Assembly (NCBI GenBank): GCA_963855995.1
Contig: OY979728.1
Span: 6,249,330-6,313,329 of the forward strand
Direction: 5' to 3'
Length of the DNA stretch: 64,000 nt
Source: Muricea muricata
Lineage: Eukaryota > Cnidaria > Anthozoa > Malacalcyonacea > Plexauridae
Position 1 is the first letter of the stretch, and every line of letters begins with the position of its first letter. This document shows positions 1 to 41,445 of this stretch, in pieces. A program made the translations under genes and the position numbers. A model generated the notes under the pieces. It saw only the letters and a list, made by a program, of their open reading frames with translations. It was not told the origin of the DNA and searched no databases.

Positions 1-88
1 AACGCAATGATGTACTGCAATCACGGACGTAAAAGAGACCTTCTAAATGGAAATTGAAAACTTAGCAAGTCGGGAATCATGTTTTCGT

Positions 89-111
89 CGCTCAAACCAT
101 CGACATGAGCG
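89..111. repeat. Short inverted repeat CGCTCA / TGAGCG at subunit 1/2 boundary
   Basis: The 6-bp arms are separated by 11 bases. The motif is kept in most A monomers and in many B monomers; other B monomers have CGCTAA and lose one pair. Its right arm is the hexamer that starts each 107-bp subunit. Confidence 0.6.
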
Positions 112-208
112 AAATAACATGTTGAAATGAGAAACCTATAACTTGCTTGTAAACTGAAAAGAAACGATCTTAGAACCATCAAAATTGCGTTTTAAGCGTT
201 CTGGAAGC

Positions 209-236
209 GATTTGAGCGTAAAAACATGCTCAAATC
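209..236. repeat. Perfect 9-bp inverted repeat inside family A monomers
   Basis: GATTTGAGC is followed by a 10-base spacer and its exact reverse complement GCTCAAATC. It sits at the subunit 2/3 boundary and recurs in many A monomers. Some A variants break it (GATCTGAGC), and family B has lost the right arm (TTCATATC). It could form a small cruciform or hairpin. No function is shown. Confidence 0.7.
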
Positions 237-320
237 ACCAACTAAAAATTGCCGTCTTAAATCGATCCCGGCGATGTTATAGAGCTTAAAATGATGTTTT
301 CAGTGCTAAAGTGAACGAGT

Positions 321-642
321 TAAACGCAATGATGTACTGCAATCACGGACGTAAAAGAGACCTTCTAAATGGAAATTGAAAACTTAGCAAGTCGGGAATC
401 ATGTTTTCGTCGCTCAAACCATCGACATGAGCGAAATAACATGTTGAAATGAGAAACCTATAACTTGCTTGTAAACTGAAAAGAAACGATCTTAGAACCA
501 TCAAAATTGCGTTTTAAGCGTTCTGGAAGCGATTTGAGCATAAAAACATGCTCAAATCACCAACTAAAAATTACCGTCTTTAATCGATAAGGACGACGTT
601 TTAGAGCTTAAAATGGTCTTTTCAGTGCTAAAGTGAAGGAGT
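321..642 (+). repeat. Representative family A monomer with three internal subunits
   Basis: Subunit starts, set by TGAGCG or its variants, lie at 321 (here TAAACG), 428 and 535, and the next monomer starts at 643. Subunit lengths are 107, 107 and 108 bp. The best-aligned parts are the roughly 40 bases before each start (AAAAT..GTTTT..GC.T....CGA.) and the roughly 25 bases after it (TGAGCG.AA..ACATG.T.AAATCA). The middles have diverged almost beyond alignment. This is direct evidence that the 322-bp monomer arose by triplication of a shorter unit. Confidence 0.8.
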
Positions 643-3600
643 TGAGCGCAATGTTGTACTGCAATCACGGACCTAAAAGAGACCTTCTAAATGGAAATTG
701 CAGAACTTAGCAAGTCGGGAATCATGTTTTCGGCGCTCAGACAATCGAGATGAGCGAAATAACATGTTGAAGTCAGAAACCTATAACTTGCATTTAAACT
801 GAAAAGAAACCATCTTAAAACCACCAACATCGCGTTTTAAGCGTTCTAGAAGCGATCTGAGAGTAAAAACATGCTCAAATCACCAACTAAAAATTGCCCT
901 CTTAAATCGATCACGGCCCTGTTTTAAAGCTTAAAATGATGTTTTCAGTGGTAAAGTGAACGAGTTGAGCGCAATGATGTACTGCAATCACGGACCTAAA
1001 AGAGACCTTGTAAATGGAAATTGCACAACGTAGATAGTCGGGAATCACATTTTCGGCGCTCAAACCCTCGAGATGAGCGAAATAACATGTTGAAATGAGA
1101 AACCTATAACTTGCTTGTAAACTGAAAAGAAACGATCTTACAACCATCAAAATCCCGTTTTAAGCGTTCTGGAAGCGATTTGAGCGTAAAAACATGCTCA
1201 AATCACCAACTAAAAATTGCCGTCTTAAATCGATCCCGGCGATGTTTTAGAGCTTAAAATGATGTTTTCAGTGCTAAAGTGAACGAGTTGAGTGCAATGA
1301 TGTACTGCAATCACGGACCTAAAAGAGACTTTCTAAATGGAAATTGAAAACTTAGCAAGTCGGGAATCAATTTTTTGGCGCTCAAACCATCGAGATGAGC
1401 GAAATTACATGTTGGAATGAGAAACCTATAACTTGCTTGTAAACTGAAAAGAAACGATCTTAGAACCATCAAAATCATGTTTTAAGCGTTCTAGAAGCGA
1501 TTTGAGCGTAGAAACATGCTCAAATCACCAACTAAAAACTGCCGTCTTAAATCGATCCCGGCGACGTTTTAGAGCTTATAATGATGTTTTCAATGCTAAA
1601 GAGAAGGAGTTGAGCGCAATGATGTACTGCAATCACGGACCTAAAAGAGACCTTCTAAATGGAAATTGCACAACTTAGCAAGCCGGGAATCATGTTTTCG
1701 GCGCTCAAACCATCGAATTGAGCGAAAAAAGATGTTGAAATGAGAAACCTATAACTTGCAGGTAAACTGAAAAGAAACGATCTTAGAACAATCAAAATCG
1801 CGTTTTAAGCGTTCTAGAAGCGTTTTGAGGGTAAAAATATGCTCAAATAACCAACTAAAAATTGCCGTCTTAAATCGATCCAGGCGGTGTTTTAGAACTT
1901 AAAATGATGTTTTCAGTGTTAAAGTGAACGAGTTGAGTGCAATAATGTACTGCAATCACGGACCTAAAAGAGACCTTCTAAATGGAAATTGAAAACTTAG
2001 CAAGTCGAGAATCATGTTTTCGGCGCTCAAACCATCGAGATGAGCGAAATGACATGTTGAAATGAGAAACCTATAACTTGCTTGTAAACTGAAAAGAAAC
2101 GATCTTAGAACCTCAAAATTGCGTTTTAAGCGTTCTAGAAGCGATCTGAGCGTAAAAACATGCTCAAATCACCAACTAAAAATTGCCGTCTTAAATCGAT
2201 CACGGCCCTGTTTTGAAGCTTAAAATGATGTTTTTAGTGCTAAAGTGAACGAGTTGAGCGCAATGATGTACTGCAATCACGGACCTAAAAGAGAGATTCT
2301 AAATGGAAACTGCACAACGTAGCAAGTCGGGAATGATATTTTCGGCGCTCAAACCCTCGAGATCAGCGAAATAACATGTTAAAATGAGAAACCTATAACT
2401 TGCTTGTAAACTGAAAAGAAACGATCTTACAACCATCAAAATCCCATTTTAAGCGTTCTGCAAGTGATTTGAGCGTAAAAACATGCTAAAATCACCAACT
2501 AAAAATATCCGTCTTAAATCGATCCCGGCGATGTTTTAGAGCTTAAAATGATGTTTTCAGTGCTAAAGTGAACGAGTTTAGCGCAAAGATGTACTGCAAT
2601 CACGGACCTAAAAGAGACCTTCTAAATGGAAATTGCAGAACTTAGCAAGTCGGGAATCATGTTTTCGTCGCTCAAACCATCGAGATGAGCGAAATTACAT
2701 GTTGAAATGAGGAAACCTATAACTTGCTTGTAAACTGAAAAGAAACGATCTTAGAACCATCAAAATTGCGTTTTAAGCGTTCTGGAATCGATTTGAGCGT
2801 AAAAACATGCTCAAATCACCAACTAAAAATTGCCGTCTTAAATCGATCCCGGCGATGTTATAGAGCTTAAAATGATGTTTTCAGTGCTAAAGTGAACGAG
2901 TTAAACGCAATGATGTACTGCAATCACGGACGTAAAAGAGACCTTCTAAATGGAAATTGAAAACTTAGCAAGTCGGGAATCATGTTTTCGTCGCTCAAAC
3001 CATCGAGATGAGCGAAATAACATGTTGAAATGAGAAACCTATAACTTGCTTGTAAACTGAAAAGAAACGATCTTACAACCATCAAAATCCCGTTTTAAGC
3101 GTTCTGGAAGCGATTTGAGCGTAAAAACATGCTCAAATCACCAACTAAAAATTGCCGTCTTAAATCGATCACGGCCCTGTTTTAGAGCTTAAAATGATGT
3201 TTTCAGTGCTAAATTGAAACGAGTTGAGTGCAATTATGTACTGCAATCACGGACCTAAAAGAGACTTTCTAAATGGAAATTGAAAACTTAGCAAGTCGGG
3301 AATCAATTTTTTGGCGCTCAAACCATCGAGATGAGCGAAATTACATGTTGGAATGAGAAACCTATAACTTGCTTGTAAACTGAAAAGAAACGATCTTACA
3401 ACCATCAAAATCCCGTTTTAAGCGTTCTGGAAGCGATTTGATTGTAAAAACATGCTCAAATCACCAACTAAAAATTGCCGTCTTAAATCGATCCCGGCGA
3501 TGTTTTAGAGCTTATAATGATGTTTTCAATGGTAAAGAGAAGGAGTTGAGCGCAATGATGTACTGCAATCACGGACCTAAAAGAGACCTTCTAAATGGAA

Positions 3601-4276
3601 ATTGCACAACTTAGCAAGCCGGGAATCATGTTTTCGGCGCTCAAACCATCGAGATGAGCGAAAAAAGATGTTGAAATGAGAAACCTATAACTTGCAGGTA
3701 AACTGAAAAGAAACGATCTTAGAACAATCAAAATCGCGTTTTAAGCGTTCTAGAAGCGATTTGAGGGTAAAAACATGCTCAAATAACCAACTAAAAATTG
3801 CCGTCTTAAATCGATCCAGGCGGTGTTTTAGAACTTAAAATGATGTTTTCAGTGTTAAAGTGAACGAGTTGAGTGCAATAATGTACTGCAATCACGGACC
3901 TAAAAGAGACCTTCTAAATGGAAATTGAAAACTTAGCAAGTCGAGAATCATGTTTTCGGCGCTCAAACCATCGAGATGAGCGAAATGACATGTTGAAATG
4001 AGAAACCTATAACTTGCTTGTAAACTGAAAAGAAACGATCTTAGAACCTCAAAATTGCGTTTTAAACGTTCTGGAAGCGATTTGAGCGTAAAAACATGCT
4101 AAAATCACCAACTAAAAATTGCCTTCTTTAATCGATAAGGACGACGTTTTAGAGCTTAAAATGGTCTTTTCACTGCTAAAGTGAAAGAGTTTAGCGCAAT
4201 GTTGTACTGCAATCACGGACCTAAAAGAGACCTTCTAAATGGAAATTGCAGAACTTAGTAAGTCGGGAATCATGTT

Positions 4277-7180
4277 TTCGGCGCTCAGACCATCGAGATG
4301 AGCGAAATAACATGTTGAAGTGAGAAACCTATAACTTGCATTTAAACTGAAAACAATTCATCTTAAAACCACCAACATCGCGTTTTAAGCGTTCTATAAG
4401 CGATCTGAGCGTAAAAACATGCTCAAATCACCAAATAAAAATTGCCGTCTTAAATCGATCACGGCCCTGTTTTAAAGCTTAAAATGATGTTTTCAGTGCT
4501 AAAGTGAACGAGTTGAGCGCAATGATGTACTGCAATCACGGACCTAAAAGAGAACTTCTAAATGGAAATTGCACAACGTAGCAAGTCGGGAATGATATTT
4601 TCGGCGCTCAAACATTCGAGATGAGCGAAATAACATGTTGAAATGAGAAACCTATAACTTTCATTTAAACTGAAAAGAAACGGTCTTACAACCATCAAAA
4701 TCCCGTTTTAAGCGTTCTAGAAGCGATCTGAGCGTAAAAACATGCTCAAATCACCAACTAAAAATTGCCGTCTTAAATCGATCACGGCCCTGTTTTGAAG
4801 CTTAAAATGATGTTTTTAGTGCTAAAGTGAACGAGTTGAGCGCAATGATGTACTGCAATCACGGACCTAAAAGAGAACTTCTAAATGGAAATTGCGCAAC
4901 GTAGCAAGTCGGGAATGATACTTTCGGCGCTCAAACCCTCGAGATCAGCGAAATAACATGTTAAAATGAGAAACCTATAACTTGCTTGTAAACTGAAAAG
5001 AAACGATCTTACAACCATCAAAATCCCATTTTAAGCGTTCTGCAAGTGATTTGAGCGTAAAAACATGCTCAAATCACCAAATAAAAATATCCGTCTTAAA
5101 TCGATCCCGGCGATGTTTTAGAGCTTAAAATGATGTTTTCAGTGCTAAAGTGAACGAGTTTAGCGCAAAGATGTACTGCAATCACGGACCTAAAAGAGAC
5201 CTTCTAAATGGAAATTGCAGAACTTAGCAAGTCGGGAATTATGTTTTCGTCGCTCAAACCATCGAGATGAGCGAAATAACATGTTGAAATGAGGAAACCT
5301 ATAACTTGCAGGTAAACTGAAAAGAAACGATCTTAGAACCATCAAAATTTCGTTTTAAGCGTTCTGGAAGCGATTTGAGCGTAAAAACATGCTCAAATCA
5401 CCAACTAAATATTGCCGTCTTAAATCGATCCCGGCGATGTTGTAGAGCTTAAAATGATGTTTTCAGTGCTAAAGTGAACGAGTTAAACGCAATGATGTAC
5501 TGCAATCACGGACGTAAAAGAGACCTTCTAAATGGAAATTGAAAACTTAGCAAGTCGGGAATCATGTTTTCGTCGCTCAAACCATCGAGATGAGCGAAAT
5601 AACATGTTGAAATGAGAAACCTATAACTTGCTTGTAAACTGAAAAGAAACGATCTTAGAACCATCAAAATTGCGTTTTAAGCGTTCTGGAAGCGATTTGA
5701 GCGTAAAAACATGCTGAAATCACCAACTAAAAATTACCGTCTTTAATCGATAAGGACGACGTTTTAGAGCTTAAAATGGTCTTTTCAGTGCTAAAGTGAA
5801 GGAGTTGAGCGCAATGTTGTACTGCAATCACGGACCTAAAAGAGACCTTCTAAATGGAAATTGCAGAACTTAGCAAGTCGGGAATCATGTTTTCGGCGCT
5901 CAGACAATCAACATGAGCGAAATAACATGTTGAAGTCAGAAACCTATAACTTGCATTTAAACTGAAAAGAAACGATCTTACAACCATCAAAATCCCGTTT
6001 TAAGCGTTCTGGAAGCGATTTGAGCGTAAAAACATGCTCAAATCACCAACTAAAAATTGCCGTCTTAAATCGATCCCGGCGATGTTTTAGAGCTTAAAAT
6101 GATGTTTTCAGTGCTAAAGTGAACGAGTTGAGTGCAATGATGTACTGCAATCACGGACCTAAAAGAGACTTTCTAAATGGAAATTGAAAACTTAGCAAGT
6201 CGGGAATCAATTTTTTGGCGCTCAAACCATCGAGATGAGCGAAATTACATGTTGGAATGAGAAACCTATAACTTGCTTGTAAAGTGAAAAGAAACGATCT
6301 TAGAACCATCAAAATCATGTTTTAAGCGTTCTAGAAGCGATTTGAGCGTAGAAACATGCTCAAGTCACCAACTAAAAATTGCCGTCTTAAATCGATCCCG
6401 GCGACGTTTTAGAGCTTATAATGATGTTTTCAATGCTAAAGAGAAGGAGTTGAGCGCAATGATGTACTGCAATCACGGACCTAAAAGAGACCTTCTAAAA
6501 GGAAATTGCACAACTTAGCAAGCCGGGAATCATGTTTTCGGCGCTCAAACCATCGAGATGAGCGAAAAAAGATGTTGAAATGAGAAACCTATAACTTGCA
6601 GGTAAACTGAAAAGAAACGATCTTAGCACAATCAAAATCGCGTTTTAAGCGTTCTAGAAGCGATTTGAGGGTAAAAACATGCTCAAATAACCAACTAAAA
6701 ATTGCCGTCTTAAATCGATCCAGGCGGTGTTTTAGAACTTAAAATGATGTTTTCAGTGTTAAAGTGAACGAGTTGAGTGCAATAATGTACTGCAATCACG
6801 GACCTAAAAGAGACCTTCTAAATGGAAATTGAAAACTTAGCAAGTCGAGAATCATGTTTTCGGCGCTCAAACCATCGAGATGAGCGAAATGACATGTTGA
6901 AATGAGAAACCTATAACTTGCTTGTAAACTGAAAAGAAACGATCTTAGAACCTCAAAATTGCGTTTTAAGCGTTCTGGTAGCGATTTGAGCGTAAAAACA
7001 TGCTCAAATCACCAACTAAAAATTACCGTCTTTAGTCGATAAGGACGACGTTTTAGAGCTTAAAATGGTCTTTTCAGTGCTAAAGTGAAGGAGTTGAGCG
7101 CAATGTTGTACTGCAATCACGGACCTAAAAGAGACCTTCTAAATGGAAATTGCAGAACTTAGCAAGTCGGGAATCATGTT
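4277..7180 (+). repeat. A1 higher-order repeat copy, nine monomers, 2,904 bp
   Basis: It is bounded by successive occurrences of TTCGGCGCTCAGACC at 4,277 and 7,181. It holds nine monomers in fixed order, including the variant monomers marked GGCCCTG, GCAAAGATG, TTGTAGAGC, GATAAGG, TTTTTTGGCGC and GAGGGTAAAAAC. The following copy repeats this order. Confidence 0.8.
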
Positions 7181-9763
7181 TTCGGCGCTCAGACCATCGA
7201 GATGAGGGAAATAACATGTTGAAGTGAGAAACCTATAACTTGCATTTAAACTGAAAACAATTCATCTTAAAACCACCAACATCGCGTTTTAAGCGTTCTA
7301 TAAGCGATCTGAGCGTAAAAACATGCTCAAATCACCAAATAAAAATTTCCGTCTTAAATCGATCACGGCCCTGTTTTAAAGCTTAAAATGATGTTTTCAG
7401 TGCTAAAGTGAACGAGTTGAGCGCAATGATGTACTGCAATCACGGACCTAAAAGAGAACTTCTAAATGGAAATTGCACAACGTAGCAAGTCGGGAATGAT
7501 ATTTTCGGCGCTCAAACATTCGAGATGAGCGAAATAACATGTTGAAATGAGAAACCTATAACTTTCATTTAAACTGAAAAGAAACGGTCTTACAACCATC
7601 AAAATCCCGTTTTAAGCGTTCTAGAAGCGATCTGAGCGTAAAAACATGCTCAAATCACACACTAAAAATTGCCGTCTTAAATCGATCACGGCCCTGTTTT
7701 GAAGCTTAAAATGATGTTTTTAGTGCTAAAGTGAACGAGTTGAGCGCAATGATGTACTGCAATCACGGACCTAAAAGAGAACTTCTAAATGGAAATTGCA
7801 CAACGTAGCAAGTCGGGAATCATGTTTTCGGCGCTCAAACCATCGAGATCAGCGAAATAACATGTTAAAATGAGAAACCTATAACTTGCTTGTAAACTGA
7901 AAAGAAACGATCTTACAACCATCAAAATCCCATTTTAAGCGTTCTGCAAGTGATTTGAGCGTAAAAACATGCTCAAATCACCAACTAAAAATATCCGTCT
8001 TAAATCGATCCCGGCGATGTTTTAGAGCTTAAAATGATGTTTTCAGTGCTAAAGTGAACGAGTTTAGCGCAAAGATGTACTGCAATCACGGACCTAAAAG
8101 AGACCTTCTAAATGGAAATTGCAGAACTTAGCAAGTCGGGAATTATGTTTTCGTCACTCAAACCATCGAGATGAGCGAAATAACATGTTGAAATGAGGAA
8201 ACCTATAACTTGCAGGTAAACTGAAAAGAAACGATCTTAGAACCATCAAAATTTCGTTTTAAGCGTTCTGGAAGCGATTTGAGCGTAAAAACATGCTCAA
8301 ATCACCAACTAAAAATTGCCGTCTTAAATCGATCCCGGCGATGTTGTAGAGCTTAAAATGATGTTTTCAGTGCTAAAGTGAACGAGTTAAACGCAATGAT
8401 GTACTGCAATCACGGACCTAAAAGAGACCTTCTAAATGGAAATTGCAGAACTTAGCAAGTCGGGAATCATGTTTTCGTCGCTCAAACCATCGAGATGAGC
8501 GAAATAACATGTTGAAATGAGAAACCTATAACTTTCTTGTAAACTGAAAAGAAACGATCTTAGAACCATCAAAATTGCGTTTTAAGCGTTCTGGAAGCGA
8601 TTTGAGCGTAAAAACATGCTGAAATCACCAACTAAAAATTACCGTCTTTAATCGATAAGGACGACGTTTTAGAGCTTAAAATGGTCTTTTCAGTGCTAAA
8701 GTGAAGGAGTTGAGCGCAATGTTGTACTGCAATCACGGACCTAAAAGAGACCTTCTAAATGGAAATTTCAGAACTTAGCAAGTCGGGAATCATGTTTTCG
8801 GCGCTCAGACAATCAAGATGAGCGAAATAACATGTTGAAGTCAGAAACCTATAACTTGCATTTAAACTGAAAAGAAACGATCTTAGAACCATCAAAATCC
8901 CGTTTTAAGCGTTCTGGAAGCGATTTGAGCGTAAAAACATGCTCAAATCACCAACTAAAAATTGCCGTCTTAAATCGATCCCGGCGATGTTTTAGAGCTT
9001 AAAATGATGTTTTCAGTGCTAAAGTGAACGAGTTGAGTGCAATGATGTACTGCAATCACGGACCTAAAAGAGACTTTCTAAATGGAAATTGAAAACTTAG
9101 CAAGTCGGGAATCAATTTTTTGGCGCTCAAACCATCGAGATGAGCGAAATTACATGTTGGAATGAGAAACCTATAACTTGCTTGTAAACTGAAAAGAAAC
9201 GATCTTAGAACCATCAAAATCATGTTTTAAGCGTTCTAGAAGCGATTTGAGCGTAGAAACATGCTCAAGTCACCAACTAAAAATTGCCGTCTTAAATCCA
9301 TCCCGGCGACGTTTTAGAGCTTATAATGATGTTTTCAATGCTAAAGAGAAGGAGTTGAGCGCAATGATGTACTGCAATCACGGACCTAAAAGAGACCTTC
9401 TAAATGGAAATTGCACAACTTAGCAAGCCCGGAATCATGTTTTCGGCGCTCAAACCATCGAGATGAGCGAAAAAAGATGTTGAAATGAGAAACCTATAAC
9501 TTGCAGGTAAACTGAAAAGAAACGATCTTAGCACAATCAAAATCGCGTTTTAAGCGTTCTAGAAGCGATTTGAGGGTAAAAACATGCTCAAATAACCAAC
9601 TAAAAATTGCCGTCTTAAATCGATCCAGGCGGTGTTTTAGAACTTAAAATGATGTTTTCAGTGTTAAAGTGAACGAGTTGAGTGCAATAATGTACTGCAA
9701 TCACGGACCTAAAAGAGACCTTCTAAATGGAAATTGAAAACTTAGCAAGTCGGGAATCATGTT
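7181..9763 (+). repeat. A1 higher-order repeat copy missing one monomer, 2,583 bp
   Basis: The monomer order is the same as in the preceding copy, but only eight monomers are present. The monomer carrying GATAAGG between the GTGCAATAATG monomer and the CTCAGACC monomer is missing. The deletion is exactly one monomer and in phase, with the seam inside ACTTAGCAAGTCG near 9,740. This is the signature of unequal exchange between adjacent monomers. Confidence 0.75.
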
Positions 9764-12340
9764 TTCGGCGCTCAGACCATCGAGATGAGCGAAATAACAT
9801 GTTGAAGTGAGAAACCTATAACTTGCATTTAAACTGAAAACAATTCATCTTAAAACCACCAACATCGCGTTTTAAGCGTTCTATAAGCGATCTGAGCGTA
9901 AAAACATGCTCAAATCACCAAATAAAAATTGCCGTCTTAAATCGATCACGGCCCTGTTTTAAAGCTTAAAATGATGTTTTCAGTGCTAAAGTGAACGAGT
10001 TGAGCGCAATGATGTACTGCAATCACGGACCTAAAAGAGAACTTCTAAATGGAAATTGCACAACGTAGCAAGTCGGGAATGATATTTTCGGCGCTCAAAC
10101 ATTCGAGATGAGCGAAATAACATGTTGAAATGAGAAACCTATAACTTTCATTTAAACTGAAAAGAAACGGTCTTACAACCATCAAAATCCCGTTTTAAGC
10201 GTTCTAGAAGCGATCTGAGCGTAAAAACATGCTCAAATCACCAACTAAAAATTGCCGTCTTAAATCGATCACGGCCCTGTTTTGAAGCTTAAAATGATGT
10301 TTTTAGTGCTAAAGTGAACGAGTTGAGCGCAATGATGTACTGCAATCACGGACCTAAAAGAGAACTTCTAAATGGAAACTGCACAACGTAGCAAGTCGGG
10401 AATGATATTTTCGGCGCTCAAACCCTCGAGATCAGCGAAATAACATGTTAAAATGAGGAACCTATAACTTGCTTGTAAACTGAAAAGAAACGATCTTACA
10501 ACCATCAAAATCCCATTTTAAGCGTTCTGCAAGTGATTTGAGCGTAAAAACATGCTCAAATCACCAACTAAAAATATCCGTCTTAAATCGATCCTGGCGA
10601 TGTTTTAGAGCTTAAAATGATGTTTTCAGTGCTAAAGTGAACGAGTTTAGCGCAAAGATGTACTGCAATCACGGACCTAAAAGAGACCTTCTAAATGGAA
10701 ATTGCACAACTTAGCAAGCCGGGAATCATGTTTTCGGCGCTCAAACCATCGAGATGAGCGAAAAAAGATGTTGAAATGAGAAACCTATAACTTGCAGGTA
10801 AACTGAAAAGAAACGATCTTAGCACAATCAAAATCGCGTTTTAAGCGTTCTAGAAGCGATTTGAGGGTAAAAACATGCTCAAATAACCAACTAAAAATTG
10901 CCGTCTTAAATCGATCCAGGCGGTGTTTTAGAACTTAAAATGATGTTTTCAGTGTTAAAGTGAACGAGTTGAGTGCAATAATGTACTGCAATCACGGAAC
11001 TAAAAGAGACCTTCTAAATGGAAATTGAAAACTTAGCAAGTCGAGAATCATGTTTTCGGCGCTCAAACCATCGAGATGAGCGAAATGACATGTTGAAATG
11101 AGAAACCTATAACTTGCTTGTAAACTGAAAAGAAACGATCTTACAACCATCAAAATCCCATTTTAAGCGTTCTGCAAGTGATTTGAGCGTAAAAACATGC
11201 TCAAATCACCAACTAAAAATATCCGTCTTAAATCGATCCCAGCGATGTTTTAGAGCTTAAAATGATGTTTTCAGTGCTAAAGTGAACGAGTTTAGCGCAA
11301 AGATGTACTGCAATCACGGACCTAAAAGAGACCTTCTAAATGGAAATTGCAGAACTTAGCAAGTCGGGAATCATGTTTTCGTCGCTCAAACCATCGAGAT
11401 GAGCGAAATAACATGTTGAAATGAGGAAACCTATAACTTGCAGGTAAACTGAAAAGAAACGATCTTAGAACCATCAAAATTGCGTTTTAAGCGTTCTGGA
11501 AGCGATTTGAGCGTAAAAACATGCTCAAATCACCAACTAAAAATTGCCGTCTTAAATCGATCCCGGCGATGTTATAGAGCTTAAAATGATGTTTTCAGTG
11601 CTAAAGTGAACGAGTTAAACGCAATGATGTACTGCAATCACGGACCTAAAAGAGACCTTCTAAATGGAAATTGAAAACTTAGCAAGTCGGGAATCATGTT
11701 TTCGTCGCTCAAACCATCGACATGAGCGAAATAACATGTTGAAATGAGAAACCTATAACTTGCTTGTAAACTGAAAAGAAACGATCTTAGAACCATCAAA
11801 ATCGCGTTTTAAGCGTTCTGGAAGCGATTTGAGCGTAAAAACTTGCTCAAATCACTAACAAAAAATTACCGTCTTAAATCGATAAGGACGATGTTTTAGA
11901 GCTTAAAATGGCGTTTTCACTGCTAAAGTGAAGGAGTTGAGCGGAATGTTGTACTGCAATCACGGACCTAAAAGAGACTTTCTAAATGGAAATTGAAAAC
12001 TTAGCAAGTCGGGAATCAATTTTTTGGCGCTCAAACCATCGAGATGAGCGAAATTACATGTTGGAATGAGAAACCTATAACTTGCTTGTAAACTGAAAAG
12101 AAACGATCTTAGAACCATCAAAATCATGTTTTAAGCGTTCTAGAAGCGATTTGAGCGTAAAAACATGCTCAAATCACCAACTAAAAATTGCCGTCTTAAA
12201 TCGATCCCGGCGACGTTTTAGAGCTTATAATGATGTTTTCAATGCTAAAGTGAAGGAGTTGAGCGCAATGATGTACTGCAATCACGGACCTAAAAGAGAC
12301 CTTCTAAATGGAAATTGCACAACGTAGCAAGTCGGGAATC

Positions 12341-14466
12341 ATGTTTTCGGCGCTCAAACCATCGAGATGAGCGAAATGACATGTTGAAATGAGAAACCTA
12401 TAACTTGCTTGTAAACTGAAAAGAAACGATCTTAGAACCTCAAAATTGCGTTTTAAACGTTCTGGAAGCGATTTGAGCGTAAAAACATGCTAAAATCACC
12501 AACTAAAAATTGCCTTCTTTAATCGATAAGGACGACGTTTTAGAGCTTAAAATGGTCTTTTCACTGCTAAAGTGAAAGAGTTCAGCGCAATGTTGTACTG
12601 CAATCACGGACCTAAAAGAGACCTTCTAAATGGAAATTGCAGAACTTAGCAAGTCGGGAATCATGTTTTCGGCGCTCAGACCATCGAGATGAGCGAAATA
12701 ACATGTTGAAGTGAGAAACCAATAACTTGCATTTAAACTGAAAACAATTCATCTTAAAACCACCAACATCGCGTTTTAAGCGTTCTATAAGCGATCTGAG
12801 CGTAAAAACATGCTCAAATCACCAAATAAAAATTGCCGTCTGAAATCGATCACGGCCCTGTTTTAAAGCTTAAAATGATGTTTTCAGTGCTAAAGTGAAC
12901 GAGTTGAGCGCAATGATGTACTGCAATCACGGACCTAAAAGAGAACTTCTAAATGGAAATTGCACAACGTAGCAAGTCGGGAATGATATTTTCGGCGCTC
13001 AAACATTCGAGATGAGCGAAATAACATGTTGAAATGAGAAACCTATAACTTTCATTTAAACTGAAAAGAAACGGTCTTACAACCATCAAAATCCCGTTTT
13101 AAGCGTTCTAGAAGCGATCTGAGCGTAAAAACATGCTCAAATCACACACTAAAAATTGCCGTCTTAAATCGATCACGGCCCTGTTTTGAAGCTTAAAATG
13201 ATGTTTTTAGTGCTAAAGTGAACGAGTTGAGCGCAATGATGTACTGCAATCACGGACCTAAAAGAGAACTTCTAAATGGAAACTGCACAACGTAGCAAGT
13301 CGGGAATGATATTTTCGGCGCTCAAACCCTTGAGATCAGCGAAATATCATGTTAAAATGAGAAACCTATAACTTGCTTGTAAACTGAAAAGAAACGATCT
13401 TACAACCATCAAAATCCCATTTTAAGCGTTCTGCAAGTGATTTGAGCGTAAAAACATGCTCAAATCACCAACTAAAAATATCCGTCTTAAATCGATCCCG
13501 GCGATGTTTTAGAGCTTAAAATGATGTTTTCAGTGCTAAAGTGAACGAGTTTAGCGCAAAGATGTACTGCAATCACGGACCTAAAAGAGACCTTCTAAAT
13601 GGAAATTGCAGAACTTAGCAAGTCGGGAATTATGTTTTCGTCGCTCAAACCATCGAGATGAGCGAAATAACATGTTGAAATGAGGAAACCTATAACTTGC
13701 AGGTAAACTGAAAAGAAACGATCTTAGAACCATCAAAATTTCGTTTTAAGCGTTCTGGAAGCGATTTGAGCGTAAAAACATGCTCAAATCACCAACTAAA
13801 TATTGCCGTCTTAAATCGATCCCGGCGATGTTGTAGAGCTTAAAATGATGTTTTCAGTGCTAAAGTGAACGAGTTAAACGCAATGATGTACTGCAATCAC
13901 GGACGTAAAAGAGACCTTCTAAATGGAAATTGAAAACTTAGCAAGTCGGGAATCATGTTTTCGTCGCTCAAACCATCGAGATGAGCGAAATAACATGTTG
14001 AAATGAGAAACCTATAACTTGCTTGTAAACTGAAAAGAAACGATCTTAGAACCATCAAAATTGCGTTTTAAGCGTTCTGGAAGCGATTTGAGCGTAAAAA
14101 CATGCTGAAATCACCAACTAAAAATTACCGTCTTTAATCGATAAGGACGACGTTTTAGAGCTTAAAATGGTCTTTTCAGTGCTAAAGTGAAGGAGTTGAG
14201 CGCAATGTTGTACTGCAATCACGGACCTAAAAGAGACCTTCTAAATGGAAATTGCAGAACTTAGCAAGTCGGGAATCATGTTTTCGGCGCTCAGACAATC
14301 AACATGAGCGAAATAACATGTTGAAGTCAGAAACCTATAACTTGCATTTAAACTGAAAAGAAACGATCTTACAACCATCAAAATCCCGTTTTAAGCGTTC
14401 TGGAAGCGATTTGAGCGTAAAAACATGCTCAAATCACCAACTAAAAATTGCCGTCTTAAATCGATC
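12341..14466 (+). repeat. Segmental copy of 3,950-6,075 (offset 8,391 bp)
   Basis: Markers at 4,134 and 5,749 recur at 12,525 and 14,140. Rare shared variants include GGGAATTATG with TTGTAGAGC and CAGACAATCAACATG. The left edge falls inside subunit 1, where GAAAACTTAGC gives way to GCACAACGTAGC. The right edge lies in TCGATCC(C/A)GG. Confidence 0.75.
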
Positions 14467-16631
14467 CAGGCGGTGTTTTAGAACTTAAAATGATGTTTTC
14501 AGTGTTAAAGTGAACGAGTTGAGTGCAATAATGTACTGCAATCACGGACCTAAAAGAGACCTTCTAAATGGAAATTGAAAACTTAGCAAGTTGGGAATCA
14601 TGTTTTCGGCGCTCAGACCATCGAGATGAGCGAAATAACATGTTGAAGTGAGAAACCTATAACTTGCATTTAAACTGAAAACAATTCATCTTAAAACCAC
14701 CAACATCGCGTTTTAAGCGTTCTATAAGCGATCTGAGCGTAAAAACATGCTCAAATCACCAAATAAAAATTGCCGTCTTAAATCGATCACGGCCCTGTTT
14801 TAAAGCTTAAAATGATGTTTTCAGTGCTAAAGTGAACGAGTTGAGCGCAATGATGTACTGCAATCACGGACCTAAAAGAGAACTTCTAAATGGAAATTGC
14901 ACAACGTAGCAAGTCGGGAATGATATTTTCGGCGCTCAAACATTTGAGATGAGCGAAATAACATGTTGAAATGAGAAACCTATAACTTTCATTTAAACTG
15001 AAAAGAAACGGTCTTACAACCATCAAAATCCCGTTTTAAGCGTTCTAGAAGCGATCTGAGCGTAAAAACATGCTCAAATCACCAACTAAAAATTGCCGTC
15101 TTAAATCGATCACGGCCCTGTTTTGAAGCTTAAAATGATGTTTTTAGTGCTAAAGTGAACGAGTTGAGCGCAATGATGTACTGCAATCACGGACCTAAAA
15201 GAGAACTTCTAAATGGAAATTGCACAACGTAGCAAGTCGGGAATGATATTTTCGGCGCTCAAACCCTCGAGATCAGCGAAATAACATGTTAAAATGAGAA
15301 ACCTATAACTTGCTTGTAAACTGAAAAGAAACGATCTTACAACCATCAAAATCCCATTTTAAGCGTTCTGCAAGTGATTTGAGCGTAAAAACATGCTCAA
15401 ATCACCAACTAAAAATATCCGTCTTAAATCGATCCCGGCGATGTTTTAGAGCTTAAAATGATGTTTTCAGTGCTAAAGTGAACGAGTTTAGCGCAAAGAT
15501 GTACTGCAATCACGGACCTAAAAGAGACCTTCTAAATGGAAATTGCACAACTTAGCAAGCCGGGAATCATGTTTTCGGCGCTCAAACCATCGAGATGAGC
15601 GAAAAAAGATGTTGAAATGAGAAACCTATAACTTGCAGGTAAACTGAAAAGAAACGATCTTAGCACAATCAAAATCGCGTTTTAAGCGTTCTAGAAGCGA
15701 TTTGAGGGTAAAAACATGCTCAAATAACCAACTAAAAATTGCCGTCTTAAATCGATCCAGGCGGTGTTTTAGAACTTAAAATGATGTTTTCAGTGTTAAA
15801 GTGAACGAGTTGAGTGCAATAATGTACTGCAATCACGGACCTAAAAGAGACCTTCTAAATGGAAATTGAAAACTTAGCAAGTCGAGAATCATGTTTTCGG
15901 CGCTCAAACCATCGAGATGAGCGAAATGACATGTTGAAATGAGAAACCTATAACTTGCTTGTAAACTGAAAAGAAACGATCTTACAACCATCAAAATCCC
16001 ATTTTAAGCGTTCTGCAAGTGATTTGAGCGTAAAAACATGCTCAAATCACCAACTAAAATTATCCGTCTTAAATCGATCCCAGCGATGTTTTAGAGCTTA
16101 AAATGATGTTTTCAGTGCTAAAGTGAACGAGTTTAGCGCAAAGATGTACTGCAATCACGGACCTAAAAGAGACCTTCTAAATGGAAATTGCAGAACTTAG
16201 CAAGTCGGGAATCATGTTTTCGTCGCTCAAACCATCGAGATGAGCGAAATAACATGTTGAAATGAGGAAACCTATAACTTGCAGGTAAACTGAAAAGAAA
16301 CGATCTTAGAACCATCAAAATTGCGTTTTAAGCGTTCTGGAAGCGATTTGAGCGTAAAAACATGCTCAAATCACCAACTAAAAATTGCCGTCTTAAATCG
16401 ATCCCGGCGATGTTATAGAGCTTAAAATGATGTTTTCAGTGCTAAAGTGAACGAGTTTAGCGCAAAGATGTACTGCAATCACGGACGTAAAAGAGACCTT
16501 CTAAATGGAAATTGAAAACTTAGCAAGTCGGGAATCATGTTTTCGTCGCTCAAACCATCGACATGAGCGAAATAACATGTTGAAATGAGAAACCTATAAC
16601 TTGCTTGTAAACTGAAAAGAAACGATCTTAG
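14461..16631 (+). repeat. Segmental copy of 9,620-11,790 (offset 4,841 bp)
   Basis: Both copies carry the one-monomer-deleted seam (GTGCAATAATG monomer followed by the CTCAGACC monomer), the GCAAGCCGGG monomer directly after a GCAAAGATG monomer, and the CCAGCGATG variant. The deletion event therefore preceded this duplication. Confidence 0.72.
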
Positions 16632-17043
16632 AACCATCAAAATTGCGTTTTAAGCGTTCTGGAAGCGATTTGAGCGTAAAAACATGCTCAAATCACCAAC
16701 TAAAAATTGCCGTCTTAAATCGATCCCGGCGATGTTATAGAGCTTAAAATGATGTTTTCAGTGCTAAAGTGAACGAGTTAAACGCAATGATGTACTGCAA
16801 TCACGGACGTAAAAGAGACCTTCTAAATGGAAATTAAAAACTTAGCAAGTCGGGAATCATGTTTTCGTCGCTCAAACCATCGACATGAGCGAAATAACAT
16901 GTTGAAATGAGAAACCTATAACTTGCTTGTAAACTGAAAAGAAACGATCTTAGAACCATCAAAATTGCGTTTTAAGCGTTCTGGAAGCGATTTGAGCGTA
17001 AAAACATGCTCAAATCACCAACTAAAAATTACCGTCTTTAATC

Positions 17044-20000
17044 GATAAGGACGACGTTTTAGAGCTTAAAATGGTCTTTTCAGTGCTAAAGTGAAGGAGT
17101 TGAGCGCAATGTTGTACTGCAATCACGGACCTAAAAGAGACCTTCTAAATGGAAATTGCAGAACTTAGCAAGTCGGGAATCATGTTTTCGGCGCTCAGAC
17201 AATCGAGATAAGCGAAATAACATGTTGAAGTCAGAAACCTATAACTTGCATTTAAACTGAAAACAATTCATCTTAAAACCACCAAAATCGCGTTTTAAGC
17301 GTTCTATAAGCGATCTGAGCGTAAAAACATGCTCAAATCACCAAATAAAAATTGCCGTCTTAAATCGATCACGGCCCTGTTTTAAAGCTTAAAATGATGT
17401 TTTCAGTGCTAAAGTGAACGAGTTGAGCGCAATGATGTACTGCAATCACGGACCTAAAAGAGAACTTCTAAATGGAAATTGCACAACGTAGCAAGTCGGG
17501 AATGATATTTTCGGCGCTCAAACATTCGAGATGAGCGAAATAACATGTTGAAATGAGAAACCTATAACTTTCATTTAAACTGAAAAGAAACGGTCTTACA
17601 ACCATCAAAATCCCGTTTTAAGCGTTCTAGAAGCGATCTGAGCGTAAAAACATGCTCAAATCACCAACTAAAAATTGCCGTCTTAAATCGATCACGGCCC
17701 TGTTTTGAAGCTTAAAATGATGTTTTTAGTGCTAAAGTGAACGAGTTGAGCGCAATGATGTACTGCAATCACGGACCTAAAAGAGAACTTCTAAATGGAA
17801 ATTGCGCAACGTAGCAAGTCGGGAATGATACTTTCGGCGCTCAAACCCTCGAGATCAGCGAAATAACATGTTAAAATGAGAAACCTATAACTTGCTTGTA
17901 AACTGAAAAGAAACGATCTTACAACCATCAAAATCCCATTTTAAGCGTTCTGCAAGTGATTTGAGCGTAAAAACATGCTCAAATCACCAAATAAAAATAT
18001 CCGTCTTAAATCGATCCCGGCGATGTTTTAGAGCTTAAAATGATGTTTTCAGTGCTAAAGTGAACGAGTTTAGCGCAAAGATGTACTGCAATCACGGACC
18101 TAAAAGAGACCTTCTAAATGGAAATTGCAGAACTTAGCAAGTCGGGAATTATGTTTTCGTCGCTCAAACCATCGAGATGAGCGAAATAACATGTTGAAAT
18201 GAGGAAACCTATAACTTGCAGGTAAACTGAAAAGAAACGATCTTAGAACCATCAAAATTTCGTTTTAAGCGTTCTGGAAGCGATTTGAGCGTAAAAACAT
18301 GCTCAAATCACCAACTAAATATTGCCGTCTTAAATCGATCCCGGCGATGTTGTAGAGCTTAAAATGATGTTTTCAGTGCTAAAGTGAACGAGTTAAACGC
18401 AATGATGTACTGCAATCACGGACGTAAAAGAGACCTTCTAAATGGAAATTGAAAACTTAGCAAGTCGGGAATCATGTTTTCGTCGCTCAAACCATCGAGA
18501 TGAGCGAAATAACATGTTGAAATGAGAAACCTATAACTTGCTTGTAAACTGAAAAGAAACGATCTTAGAACCATCAAAATTGCGTTTTAAGCGTTCTGGA
18601 AGCGATTTGAGCGTAAAAACATGCTGAAATCACCAACTAAAAATTACCGTCTTTAATCGATAAGGACGACGTTTTAGAGCTTAAAATGGTCTTTTCAGTG
18701 CTAAAGTGAAGGAGTTGAGCGCAATGTTGTACTGCAATCACGGACCTAAAAGAGACCTTCTAAATGGAAATTGCAGAACTTAGCAAGTCGGGAATCATGT
18801 TTTCGGCGCTCAGACAATCAACATGAGCGAAATAACATGTTGAAGTCAGAAACCTATAACTTGCATTTAAACTGAAAAGAAACGATCTTACAACCATCAA
18901 AATCCCGTTTTAAGCGTTCTGGAAGCGATTTGAGCGTAAAAACATGCTCAAATCACCAACTAAAAATTGCCGTCTTAAATCGATCCCGGCGATGTTTTAG
19001 AGCTTAAAATGATGTTTTCAGTGCTAAAGTGAACGAGTTGAGTGCAATGATGTACTGCAATCACGGACCTAAAAGAGACTTTCTAAATGGAAATTGAAAA
19101 CTTAGCAAGTCGGGAATCAATTTTTTGGCGCTCAAACCATCGAGATGAGCGAAATTACATGTTGGAATGAGAAACCTATAACTTGCTTGTAAAGTGAAAA
19201 GAAACGATCTTAGAACCATCAAAATCATGTTTTAAGCGTTCTAGAAGCGATTTGAGCGTAGAAACATGCTCAAGTCACCAACTAAAAATTGCCGTCTTAA
19301 ATCGATCCCGGCGACGTTTTAGAGCTTATAATGATGTTTTCAATGCTAAAGAGAAGGAGTTGAGCGCAATGATGTACTGCAATCACGGACCTAAAAGAGA
19401 CCTTCTAAAAGGAAATTGCACAACTTAGCAAGCCGGGAATCATGTTTTCGGCGCTCAAACCATCGAGATGAGCGAAAAAAGATGTTGAAATGAGAAACCT
19501 ATAACTTGCAGGTAAACTGAAAAGAAACGATCTTAGCACAATCAAAATCGCGTTTTAAGCGTTCTAGAAGCGATTTGAGGGTAAAAACATGCTCAAATAA
19601 CCAACTAAAAATTGCCGTCTTAAATCGATCCAGGCGGTGTTTTAGAACTTAAAATGATGTTTTCAGTGTTAAAGTGAACGAGTTGAGTGCAATAATGTAC
19701 TGCAATCACGGACCTAAAAGAGACCTTCTAAATGGAAATTGAAAACTTAGCAAGTCGAGAATCATGTTTTCGGCGCTCAAACCATCGAGATGAGCGAAAT
19801 GACATGTTGAAATGAGAAACCTATAACTTGCTTGTAAACTGAAAAGAAACGATCTTAGAACCTCAAAATTGCGTTTTAAGCGTTCTGGTAGCGATTTGAG
19901 CGTAAAAACATGCTCAAATCACCAACTAAAAATTACCGTCTTTAGTCGATAAGGACGACGTTTTAGAGCTTAAAATGGTCTTTTCAGTGCTAAAGTGAAG

Positions 20001-21053
20001 GAGTTGAGCGCAATGTTGTACTGCAATCACGGACCTAAAAGAGACCTTCTAAATGGAAATTGCAGAACTTAGCAAGTCGGGAATCATGTTTTCGGCGCTC
20101 AGACCATCGAGATGAGGGAAATAACATGTTGAAGTGAGAAACCTATAACTTGCATTTAAACTGAAAACAATTCATCTTAAAACCACCAACATCGCGTTTT
20201 AAGCGTTCTATAAGCGATCTGAGCGTAAAAACATGCTCAAATCACCAAATAAAAATTTCCGTCTTAAATCGATCACGGCCCTGTTTTAAAGCTTAAAATG
20301 ATGTTTTCAGTGCTAAAGTGAACGAGTTGAGCGCAATGATGTACTGCAATCACGGACCTAAAAGAGAACTTCTAAATGGAAATTGCACAACGTAGCAAGT
20401 CGGGAATGATATTTTCGGCGCTCAAACATTCGAGATGAGCGAAATAACATGTTGAAATGAGAAACCTATAACTTTCATTTAAACTGAAAAGAAACGGTCT
20501 TACAACCATCAAAATCCCGTTTTAAGCGTTCTAGAAGCGATCTGAGCGTAAAAACATACTCAAATCACCAACTAAAAATTGCCGTCTTAAATCGATCACG
20601 GCCCTGTTTTGAAGCTTAAAATGATGTTTTTAGTGCTAAAGTGAACGAGTTGAGCGCAATGATGTACTGCAATCACGGACCTAAAAGAGAACTTCTAAAT
20701 GGAAATTGCACAACGTAGCAAGTCGGGAATGATATTTTCGGCGCTCAAACCATCGAGATCAGCGAAATAACATGTTAAAATGAGAAACCTATAACTTGCT
20801 TGTAAACTGAAAAGAAACGATCTTACAACCATCAAAATCCCATTTTAAGCGTTCTGCAAGTGATTTGAGCGTAAAAACATGCTCAAATAACCAACTAAAA
20901 ATATCCGTCTTAAATCGATCCCAGCGATGTTTTAGAGCTTAAAATGATGTTTTCAGTGCTAAAGTGAACGAGTTTAGCGCAAAGATGTACTGCAATCACG
21001 GACCTAAAAGAGACCTTCTAAATGGAAATTGCAGAACTTAGCAAGTCGGGAAT
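17044..21053 (+). repeat. Segmental copy of 4,134-8,143 (offset 12,910 bp)
   Basis: The two tracts are almost identical over about 4 kb. Private variants shared at constant offset include GATACTTTCGG (4,917/17,827), CTTCTAAAAGG (6,492/19,402) and TTTAGTCGATAAGG (7,031/19,941). They separate at 8,143/21,053, where one copy has TTCGTCACTC and the other TTCGGCGCTCAG. Confidence 0.82.
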
Positions 21054-21976
21054 CATGTTTTCGGCGCTCAGACAATCAAGATGAGCGAAATAACATGTTG
21101 AAGTCAGAAACCTATAACTTGCATTTAAACTGAAAAGAAACGATCTTACAACCATCAAAATCCCGTTTTAAGCGTTCTGGAAGCGATTTGAGCGTAAAAA
21201 CATGCTCAAATCACCAACTAAAAATTGCCGTCTTAAATCGATCCCGGCGATGTTTTAGAGCTTAAAATGATGTTTTCAGTGCTAAAGTGAACGAGTTGAG
21301 TGCAATGATGTACTGCAATCACGGACCTAAAAGAGACTTTCTAAATGGAAATTGAAAACTTAGCAAGTCGGGAATCAATTTTTTGGCGCTCAAACCATCG
21401 AGATGAGCGAAATTACATGTTGGAATGAGAAACCTATAACTTGCTTGTAAAGTGAAAAGAAACGATCTTAGAACCATCAAAATCATGTTTTAAGCGTTCT
21501 AGAAGCGATTTGAGCGTAGAAACATGCTCAAGTCACCAACTAAAAATTGCCGTCTTAAATCGATCCCGGCGACGTTTTAGAGCTTATAATGATGTTTTCA
21601 ATGCTAAAGAGAAGGAGTTGAGCGCAATGATGTACTGCAATCACGGACCTAAAAGAGACCTTCTAAAAGGAAATTGCACAACTTAGCAAGCCGGGAATCA
21701 TGTTTTCGGCGCTCAAACCATCGAGATGAGCGAAAAAAGATGTTGAAATGAGAAACCTATAACTTGCAGGTAAACTGAAAAGAAACGATCTTAGCACAAT
21801 CAAAATCGCGTTTTAAGCGTTCTAGAAGCGATTTGAGGGTAAAAACATGCTCAAATAACCAACTAAAAATTGCCGTCTTAAATCGATCCAGGCGGTGTTT
21901 TAGAACTTAAAATGATGTTTTCAGTGTTAAAGTGAACGAGTTGAGTGCAATAATGTACTGCAATCACGGACCTAAA

Positions 21977-22982
21977 AGAGACCTTCTAAATGCAAATTGC
22001 AGAACTTAGCAAGTCGGGAATCATGTTTTCGGCGCTCAGACCATCGAGATGAGGGAAATAACATGTTGAAGTGAGAAACCTATAACTTGCATTTAAACTG
22101 AAAACAATTCATCTTAAAACCACCAACATCGCGTTTTAAGCGTTCTATAAGCGATCTGAGCGTAAAAACATGCTCAAATCACCAAATAAAAATTTCCGTC
22201 TTAAATCGATCACGGCCCTGTTTTAAAGCTTAAAATGATGTTTTCAGTGCTAAAGTGAACGAGTTGAGCGCAATGATGTACTGCAATCACGGACCTAAAA
22301 GAGAACTTCTAAATGGAATATGCACAACGTAGCAAGTCGGGAATGATATTTTCGGCGCTCAAACATTCGAGATGAGCGAAATAACATGTTGAAATGAGAA
22401 ACCTATAACTTTCATTTAAACTGAAAAGAAACGGTCTTACAACCATCAAAATCCCGTTTTAAGCGTTCTAGAAGCGATCTGAGCGTAAAAACATACTCAA
22501 ATCACCAACTAAAAATTGCCGTCTTAAATCGATCACGGCCCTGTTTTGAAGCTTAAAATGATGTTTTTAGTGCTAAAGTGAACGAGTTGAGCGCAATGAT
22601 GTACTGCAATCACGGACCTAAAAAAGAACTTCTAAATGGAAATTGCACAACGTAGCAAGTCGGGAATGATATTTTCGGCGCTCAAACCATCGAGATCAGC
22701 GAAATAACATGTTAAAATGAGAAACCTATAACTTGCTTGTAAACTGAAAAGAAACGATCTTACAACCATCAAAATCCCATTTTAAGCGTTCTGCAAGTGA
22801 TTTGAGCGTAAAAACATGCTCAAATCACCAACTAAAAATATCCGTCTTAAATCGATCCCAGCGATGTTTTAGAGCTTAAAATGATGTTTTCAGTGCTAAA
22901 GTGAACGAGTTTAGCGCAAAGATGTACTGCAATCACGGACCTAAAAGAGACCTTCTAAATGGAAATTGCAGAACTTAGCAAG
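21977..22982 (+). repeat. Six-monomer tandem copy of 20,040-21,045 (offset 1,937 bp)
   Basis: Shared private variants are GAGGGAAATAAC (20,114/22,051) and AAACATACTCAAATC. The unit is six monomers, shorter than the nine-monomer A1 unit. It is best read as a deletion derivative of that unit that was then tandemly duplicated. Confidence 0.7.
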
Positions 22983-25339: not shown

Positions 25340-25985
25340 GATCTTAGAACCATCAAAATCATGTTTTAAGCGTTCTAGAAGCGATTTGAGGGTAGAAACA
25401 TGCTCAAGTCACCAACTAAAAATTGCCGTCTTAAATCGATCCCGGCGACGTTTTAGAGCTTATAATGATGTTTTCAATGCTAAAGAGAAGGAGTTGAGCG
25501 CAATGATGTACTGCAATCACGGACCTAAAAGAGACCTTCTAAATGGAAATTGCACAACTTAGCAAGCCGGGAATCATGTTTTCGGCGCTAAAACCATCGA
25601 GATGAGCGAAAAAAGATGTTGAAATGAGAAACCTATAACTTGCAGGTAAACTGAAAAGAAACGATCTTAGAACCATCAAAATCATGTTTTAAGCGTTCTA
25701 GAAGCGATTTGAGCGTAGAAACATGCTCAAGTCACCAACTAAAAATTGCCGTCTTAAATCGATCCCGGCGACGTTTTAGAGCTTATAATGATGTTTTCAA
25801 TGCTAAAGAGAAGGAGTTGAACGCAATGATGTACTGCAATCACGGACCTAAAAGAGACCTTCTAAATGGAAATTGCACAACTTAGCAAGCCGGGAATCAT
25901 GTTTTCGGCGCTAAAACCATCGAGATGAGCGAAAAAAGATGTTAAAATGAGAAACCTATAACTTGCAGGTAAACTGAAAAGAAAC
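25340..25985 (+). repeat. Adjacent near-identical monomer pair
   Basis: Two consecutive monomers (about 25,340-25,662 and 25,663-25,985) share the variants GGCGCTAAAACC, GTAGAAACATGC and CTTATAATG. This is a recent single-monomer tandem duplication inside A1. Confidence 0.7.
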
Positions 25986-28900: not shown

Positions 28901-29275
28901 CCATTAAAATCACGTTTTAAGCGTTCTAGAAGCGATTTGAGCGTAAAAATATCCTCAAATCACCAACTAAAAATTGCCGTCTTTAATCGATAAGGACGAC
29001 GTTTTAGAGCTTAAAATGGTCTTTTCAGTTCTAAAGTGAAGGAGTTGAGCGCAATGTTGTACTGCAATCACGGACCTAAAAGAGACCTTCTAAATGGAAA
29101 TTGCAGAACTTAGCAAGTCGGGAATCATGTTTTTGGCGCTCAGACCATCGAGATGAGCGAAATAACATGTTAAAGTGAGAAACCTATAACTTGCATTTAA
29201 ACCGAAAAGAAACCATCTTAAAACCACCAACATCGCGTTTTAAGCGTTCTAGAAGCGATCTGAGCGTAAAAACAT

Positions 29276-32905: not shown

Positions 32906-33122
32906 AGTGAACGAGTTGAGCCCAATGATGTACTGCAATGACGGACGTAAAAGAGACCTTCTAAATGGAAATTGAAAACTTAGCAAGTCGGGAATCATGT
33001 TTTCGGCGCTCAAACCATCGAGATGAGCGAAATAACATGTTGAAATTAGAAACCTATAACTTGCTTGTAAACTGAAAAGAAACGATCTTAGAACCATCAA
33101 AATCAAGTTTTAAGCGTTCTAG

Positions 33123-35078: not shown

Positions 35079-35139
35079 CATGCTCAAATCACCAACTAAA
35101 AATTGCCGTCTTAAATCGATCCCGGCGATGTTATAGAGC

Positions 35140-41430: not shown

Positions 41431-41445
41431 ACCTATAACTTGCTT
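41431..41445. other. In-register junction between satellite families A and B
   Basis: The bases ACCTATAACTTGCTT belong to both families. To the left the monomer is type A (GAGATACC, CCTAAAAGAGACC). To the right it reads TAAAACTGAAAAGAAATGATTTTAC, which is type B. Monomer phase is unbroken, so the seam was probably made by homologous exchange between an A and a B monomer, not by end joining. Confidence 0.8.

What the first reader, a model, noticed from the sequence alone, without database searches (positions are those of the whole stretch)
321..642. The 322-bp monomer is an ancient trimer of a roughly 107-bp unit
TGAGCG or a close variant marks three points spaced 107, 107 and 108 bp in both families (A: 321, 428, 535, 643; B: 61,390, 61,497, 61,604, 61,712). 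Around each point about 65 bases align: AAAAT..GTTTT......CGA before and TGAGCG.AA..ACATG.T.AAAT after. The match is too regular to be chance. Standard tandem-repeat annotation would report only 322 bp and hide this deeper level.
Basis: seen in the sequence. Interest (0 to 1): 0.8.

Follow-up and report, generated by a model that had tools for sequence, protein, structure and literature searches.

The report
Satellite DNA built from diverged triplet
This long stretch of repetitive, non-coding DNA has a 323-base unit that is itself three old, diverged copies of a roughly 108-base unit; it is a clear fossil of how such repeats grow, but of a kind already known from other organisms.

Summary
The 322/323-bp satellite monomer in both families (A and B) is three diverged ~107.7-bp subunits in fixed head-to-tail order. 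In all six within-family subunit pairs, 0 of 2000 dinucleotide shuffles reach the observed score (z 3.9-8.0). Without any gap, all three subunits agree at 41 of 107 columns in A and 37 of 107 in B; the largest of 3000 shuffles are 25 and 21. Like subunits of A and B are 83-90% identical but subunits within a consensus monomer only 49-61%, so the trimer predates the A/B split. In 181 of 181 forward monomers the order is 1-2-3, and none gained or lost a 107-bp unit. Default TRF reports no 107-bp period; a lax setting gives it in 1 of 225 rows. Best explanation: a trimeric higher-order repeat was amplified, became the new monomer and lost its old register. The closest parallel found is the New World monkey 343-bp repeat, a diverged dimer of 171 bp. 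No residual 107-bp array, relative or host was found. A deeper ~21.5-bp level shows in A/T composition but failed a phase test; it is only suggestive. Function was not tested.

The parts
321..427 (+). subunit 1 of the first full A monomer (starts with the variant box TAAACG)
   Evidence: box position and subunit alignment
428..534 (+). subunit 2 of the same monomer
535..642 (+). subunit 3 of the same monomer
1..41294 (+). family A array; 127 full monomers cut, spacing 319-324 bp
   Evidence: TRF row 3-41702; monomer cutting; the monomer at 41295-41616 is already closer to B (0.92 against 0.88)
52014..64000 (+). family B array (37 monomers cut) with a 10-monomer higher-order repeat
   Evidence: TRF; mean identity at distance 10 is 0.936, at the other distances up to 24 it is 0.869-0.900
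44223..47922 (+). family B array between an inverted stretch and an insert
   Evidence: TRF
42754..44225 (-). family B monomers in inverted orientation; a near-identical copy lies at 50543-52014
   Evidence: TRF, inverted repeats, reverse-strand anchors
61390..61711 (+).

Best explanation
The window is eukaryote-type satellite DNA. An ancestral tandem array of a ~107-108-bp monomer diverged, a block of three adjacent variants was amplified as one unit (a trimeric higher-order repeat), and this became the monomer that is now homogenised. Its subunits are now only 49-61% alike, so exchange out of register at 107 bp has probably ceased and the array is locked to 323 bp. Later the 323-bp unit split into families A and B (13% apart), and B gained a further 10-monomer higher-order repeat. 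Shown here: subunit homology, fixed order, trimer older than the A/B split, absence of 107-bp gains or losses in the monomers cut. Inferred: the ancestral monomer array, unequal exchange or a similar copying process as the amplifier, the reason for the locked register, and that the array forms centromeric or other heterochromatin. No function beyond being an array is shown.
For: For all six within-family subunit pairs 0 of 2000 dinucleotide shuffles reach the observed score; z 6.3, 8.0, 7.0 in A and 3.9, 4.7, 6.1 in B; like subunits of A and B are 88%, 90% and 83% identical. Three-way identical columns without gaps: 41 of 107 (A), 37 of 107 (B); with one gap 45 and 39 of 108; shuffle means 9.2 and 9.7, maxima 25 and 21. 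543 of 543 subunits from 181 monomers fall in their own class, smallest margin 55 score units. Of 186 intervals 179 are 319-324 bp, 2 are 301 bp and 5 are rearranged (603 or 1751 bp); none is changed by 107. A/B consensus identity 87%. A lax TRF run finds period 107 once, independently of my cutting. Higher-order repeat of 10 in B. Precedent for a multimer becoming the new monomer: PMC4053949 section 11 (whole section read).
Against: No surviving 107-bp monomer array was found in the window: the highest ungapped identity at a shift of 104-111 bp in any 108-bp stretch is 0.60, so the ancestral state is inferred. B pairs 1/2 and 1/3 are weak on their own (50% and 49% identity; shuffles average 46%; the 1/2 score is 47 against a shuffle maximum of 46). 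All monomers come from one window, and A and B are not independent samples.
Confidence: 0.93

Rival explanations
1. The three boxes are recurring binding sites for a protein, spaced ~107 bp by selection (convergence) rather than by descent from one repeat.
For: The box is the longest run shared by the three A subunits. A/B fixed differences are rarer at columns shared by all three subunits (10 of 135 sites against 32 of 188; base-matched p=0.034). 1 of 18 box sites differs between the A and B consensuses, 42 of 323 overall.
Against: Homology extends through the middle of the subunit. Within arrays the box departs from consensus no less than the average site (A 0.054 against 0.053, B 0.080 against 0.064), and shared columns are not significantly better conserved once base composition is matched (p=0.36 in A, 0.16 in B).
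Confidence: 0.05
2. The unit is nested more deeply: five ~21.5-bp units make the 107.7-bp subunit and three of those make the 323-bp monomer (compatible with the best explanation).
For: In the four-letter spectrum the harmonics 15, 30 and 45 of the monomer (21.53, 10.77, 7.18 bp) rank 1-3 in A and in B. Their summed power exceeds a null that keeps the trimer: p=0.0013 (A), 0.0003 (B), 0 of 3000 jointly; 0.009, 0.0027 and 0.003 after taking the best of 16 candidate periods. An A-minus-T signal at this period survives a null that keeps the A/T versus G/C pattern (p=0.0002, 0 of 1000 over all candidate periods). Subunits 2 and 3 alone are significant in both families (p 0.0013-0.025).
Against: Leave-one-out phase ranks of the five units are 13, 4, 18, 1 and 3 of 21; the chance of so low a rank sum is 0.13. 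Subunit 1 alone is not significant (p=0.19 and 0.12). The 21.53-bp peak itself is below the 95% shuffle maximum in both families (4.04 against 4.76, 3.77 against 5.17). The 21.53-bp signal is carried by A and T, hardly by G and C. Part of it comes from a local 20-bp duplication in subunit 3 of A monomers. The null does not keep dinucleotides.
Confidence: 0.2
3. The A/T pattern is helical phasing (A/T steps every 10.77 bp, two turns per 21.5 bp) kept for nucleosome wrapping, not a fossil repeat (also compatible with the best explanation).
For: A/T dinucleotide power at 10.77 bp: p=0.0015 in each family with a null that keeps the trimer; 0.0135 and 0.0100 over the three helical candidates.
Against: p=0.081 (A) and 0.072 (B) after taking the best of all candidate periods; simple wrapping would not by itself give the A-versus-T alternation at 21.5 bp.
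Confidence: 0.3
4. The similarity is chance in A/T-rich sequence.
For: The window is about 62-67% A+T in 2-kb steps, which raises random identity (shuffles give 46-48% gapped identity).
Against: 0 of 2000 shuffles for each of six pairs; three-way columns far above every shuffle.
Confidence: 0.01

Closest known systems
New World monkey 343-bp centromere repeat, a diverged dimer of the 171-bp unit (PMC4053949, section 11 read in full)
   Same: A multimer of an older monomer became the new homogenised monomer; its parts are now only weakly alike.
   Different: Dimer rather than trimer; [quoted passage not shown]
Chrysolina carnifex pericentromeric satellite: 211-bp monomers, dimers and 633-bp trimers (PMC8122249, passage seen)
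   Same: Trimeric higher-order organisation of a satellite.
   Different: Monomers, dimers and trimers are all reported there; in this window only the trimer was found. Sequence not compared.
Vitis vinifera 107-bp centromere-linked repeat (PMC10199708, passages seen)
   Same: Period of 107 bp.
   Different: Sequence not compared here; recalled as unrelated. Length alone is no evidence of kinship.
Tribolium castaneum TCsat38, dimeric higher-order repeat with subunits 19.4% apart (PMC10218199, passage seen)
   Same: Subunits of the repeat differ more from each other than copies of one subunit do.
   Different: Dimer, and much less diverged than the 39-51% here.

Membership tests
satellite DNA | long head-to-tail array of a non-coding unit | tested here: met
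   129.3 copies at 91% matches in one TRF row; no ORF of 100 aa or more, open ends included
higher-order repeat that became a new monomer | unit made of several homologous subunits in fixed order | tested here: met
higher-order repeat that became a new monomer | same-position subunits in different copies far more alike than neighbouring subunits | tested here: met
   83-90% across the two families against 49-61% within a consensus monomer
higher-order repeat that became a new monomer | ancestral monomer array still found in the genome or in relatives | tested here: inconclusive
   none in the window; no host genome held; no eukaryote collection to search
centromeric satellite | bound by the centromeric histone (CENH3/CENP-A) | not testable with these tools
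   needs chromatin data from the host
retrotransposon-derived satellite | similarity to part of a transposable element | not tested
   no transposon library on hand

The most novel reading that the evidence does not exclude
The satellite grew by at least three rounds of multimer capture: a ~21.5-bp unit five times, then ~107.7 bp three times, then 323 bp ten times in family B, with A-rich and T-rich stretches alternating over two helical turns, so that one unit records the whole growth series.
Probability: 0.15. Interest if true: 0.45.

Novelty: new member of a known kind. Interest (0 to 1): 0.3.

Why it matters
It shows that the monomer length given by default tandem-repeat annotation can hide an older, shorter repeat, so comparing satellites between species by reported period can miss kinship. 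Here the ~108-bp subunit consensus, not the 323-bp unit, would be the right probe for relatives. The principle is already in print (PMC4053949 section 11).

Tried and rejected
Host and relatives: no whole genome is held. Exact patterns from the satellite gave 0 matches in genome contigs (2 scans) and 0 in viral contigs (2 scans). blastn of window 41300-42300 against phages and of two monomers against plasmids gave no match. None of these collections is eukaryotic, so the absence says little.

Literature: six short stretches of the window searched as text hit only one of the six, a 12-mer, in 6 papers; by title four concern bee viruses, one bee gene expression under Varroa and one a human cell model; taken as chance, none opened. 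Searches by unit length and by trimer or subunit terms were seen as listings only (3 of 3, 20 of 926, 15 of 71, 1 of 1; 15 of 15, 9 of 9, 10 of 136 papers shown); no listed title or abstract start named a satellite with this pair of periods. The '322 bp' in the grass carp paper PMC12204074 is the tail of a centromere length, 189,322 bp (passages), a false lead. None of this shows that the satellite is unpublished.

Kinship of the 21-bp tandem in the insert with the satellite: local alignment no better than shuffles (p=0.17-0.84); rejected. Dyad symmetry: one dyad with 9-bp arms in A (fraction of shuffles 0.05), longest arm 7 in B, as in shuffles; not pursued. Conserved-box function: the uncorrected tests (p=0.011 and 0.033) lose significance after base matching (p=0.36 and 0.16). 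Methylation signature: CpG observed/expected 1.52 (A) and 1.63 (B), without a consistent excess of CpG transitions; this hints at a genome without heavy CpG methylation but identifies no host.

Row handling: the first cutting lost register in B and was replaced. One search split and so dropped 14 A monomers because the anchor also hit at the 107-bp offset; one search kept them. The consensuses used for the statistics come (108 A and 35 B of 171 aligned rows). Conservation uses 108 A and 58 B rows. Counts of 181 come and leave out partial copies at the window ends, reverse-strand monomers, three 603-bp and two 1751-bp intervals. The column counts of 45 and 39 of 108 use one placed gap while the null is gapless; the like-for-like counts are 41 and 37 of 107.

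Full report
What was checked. The first 2 kb were read directly and the window was scanned for tandem repeats. Most of the window is one satellite: family A from 1 to about 41,294 and family B from there on, interrupted by inserts and inverted stretches. No ORF of 100 aa or more was listed, with closed or open ends, under the bacterial table, and Rfam gives no match in 40,000-53,000, the only part searched.

The coordinates. Exact TGAGCG occurs 377 times on the + strand against about 16 expected from uniform base frequencies, most often spaced 107, 108 or 215 bp.

Is it more than chance? Autocorrelation of the raw sequence gives 215, 108 and 107 as the three strongest shifts below one monomer in the three stretches examined. 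With consensus monomers (108 A and 35 B copies), 0 of 2000 dinucleotide shuffles reach the score of any of the six subunit pairs; z is 6.3, 8.0 and 7.0 for A and 3.9, 4.7 and 6.1 for B. Identity is 57-58% in A and 49-61% in B, while shuffles average 46-48%; the B 1/2 and 1/3 pairs are therefore weak by themselves, and the B 1/2 score (47) only just passes its largest shuffle (46). Without gaps all three subunits agree at 41 of 107 columns in A and 37 of 107 in B; the largest of 3000 gapless shuffles are 25 and 21.

Does annotation hide it? TRF with the tool's default lists 8 rows, none near 107. Two other settings give 15 and 16 rows, none near 107; a lax setting gives 225 rows, one of which has period 107 (48543-49440, 8.4 copies, 54% matches). 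The claim is right in practice but not absolute, and the lax row is a confirmation that does not depend on my cutting.

Order of events. A1-B1, A2-B2 and A3-B3 are 88%, 90% and 83% identical, far more than subunits within a consensus monomer. The trimer therefore existed before A and B parted. In individual monomers subunits 2 and 3 are closest (mean about 60-61%), with subunit 1 further off (52-56%). All 543 subunits of 181 monomers fall in their own class, and no interval of 186 is changed by 107 bp. No remaining stretch of 107-bp monomers was found in the window; the best local ungapped identity at shifts of 104-111 bp is 0.60.

Mechanism. The simplest account is the usual life of a satellite: variants in an old ~108-bp array, amplification of a three-unit block, homogenisation of that block, and divergence of its parts until the old register probably no longer recombined. 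The starting array and the process are inferred; the homology, fixed order and relative age are shown. B shows a further round of the same kind, a 10-monomer higher-order repeat (mean identity at distance 10 is 0.936, at the other distances up to 24 it is 0.869-0.900; 21 of 37 monomers have their best match there).

A deeper level? The four-letter spectrum of both consensuses has its three highest peaks at 21.53, 10.77 and 7.18 bp, although the 21.53-bp peak alone stays below the 95% shuffle maximum. With a null that keeps the trimer and the majority dinucleotides the comb is significant (joint 0 of 3000; 0.003 after choosing the best of 16 periods), and the A-versus-T part survives a null that keeps the A/T versus G/C pattern (p=0.0002). 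Against it, the phase of left-out units is recovered for only some of them (ranks 13, 4, 18, 1, 3 of 21; chance of so low a sum 0.13), subunit 1 alone is not significant, and G and C hardly take part at 21.53 bp. A local 20-bp duplication, starting about 274-280 bp into A monomers, supplies part of the signal. I treat the level as suggestive; helical phasing is as good a reading.

Function. A protein-binding box is not supported: within arrays the box and the shared columns are not significantly better conserved than base-matched sites, although A/B fixed differences are somewhat rarer at shared columns (p=0.034). Centromeric or heterochromatic use is a guess from the kind of sequence and was not tested. 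CpG is in excess (observed/expected 1.52 and 1.63), which hints at a host without heavy CpG methylation; the host was not identified.

Known parallels. Melters and colleagues describe the New World monkey 343-bp repeat as a doubled version of the ancestral 171-bp repeat and say that such patterns are likely to be general (PMC4053949 section 11, read in full). A review reports 211-bp monomers and 633-bp trimers in Chrysolina carnifex (PMC8122249, passage). The present case is a further example with three parts and strong divergence. It is real and well supported, but it is a new member of a known kind.

Noticed in passing
41703-42205, 47923-48425, 49492-49994: A ~503-bp A/T-rich non-satellite insert in three near-identical copies, each with a 21-bp tandem (6.2 copies) and, by eye and local alignment without a shuffle control, a short inverted A-like satellite fragment; the left junction carries an inverted satellite piece. 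Ends are approximate.
   Followed up: partly
41600-44250 and 49389-52039: A segmental duplication 7,789 bp apart, 2639 of 2651 bases identical, which carries the insert and an inverted B stretch.
   Followed up: partly
52014-64000: Family B has a 10-monomer (~3.2 kb) higher-order repeat; family A has no single dominant one (commonest best-partner distances 40, 17 and 15).
   Followed up: partly
55307-55607 and 58510-58810: Two 301-bp B monomers about 3.2 kb apart in which roughly 93 bp around the subunit 2/3 border and in subunit 3 is replaced by ~72 bp with no significant similarity to the satellite (p 0.19-0.84).
   Followed up: partly
whole window: CpG observed/expected is 1.43 in the window and 1.52-1.63 in the consensuses, higher than I would expect (recalled knowledge) for a heavily methylated genome.
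   Followed up: partly
about 273-314 in the first, partial A monomer, and the same place in others: A local 20-bp direct duplication within subunit 3 of many A monomers; lax TRF lists 88 rows of period 20 or 21 over the window, most of them 273-280 bp into a monomer.
   Followed up: partly
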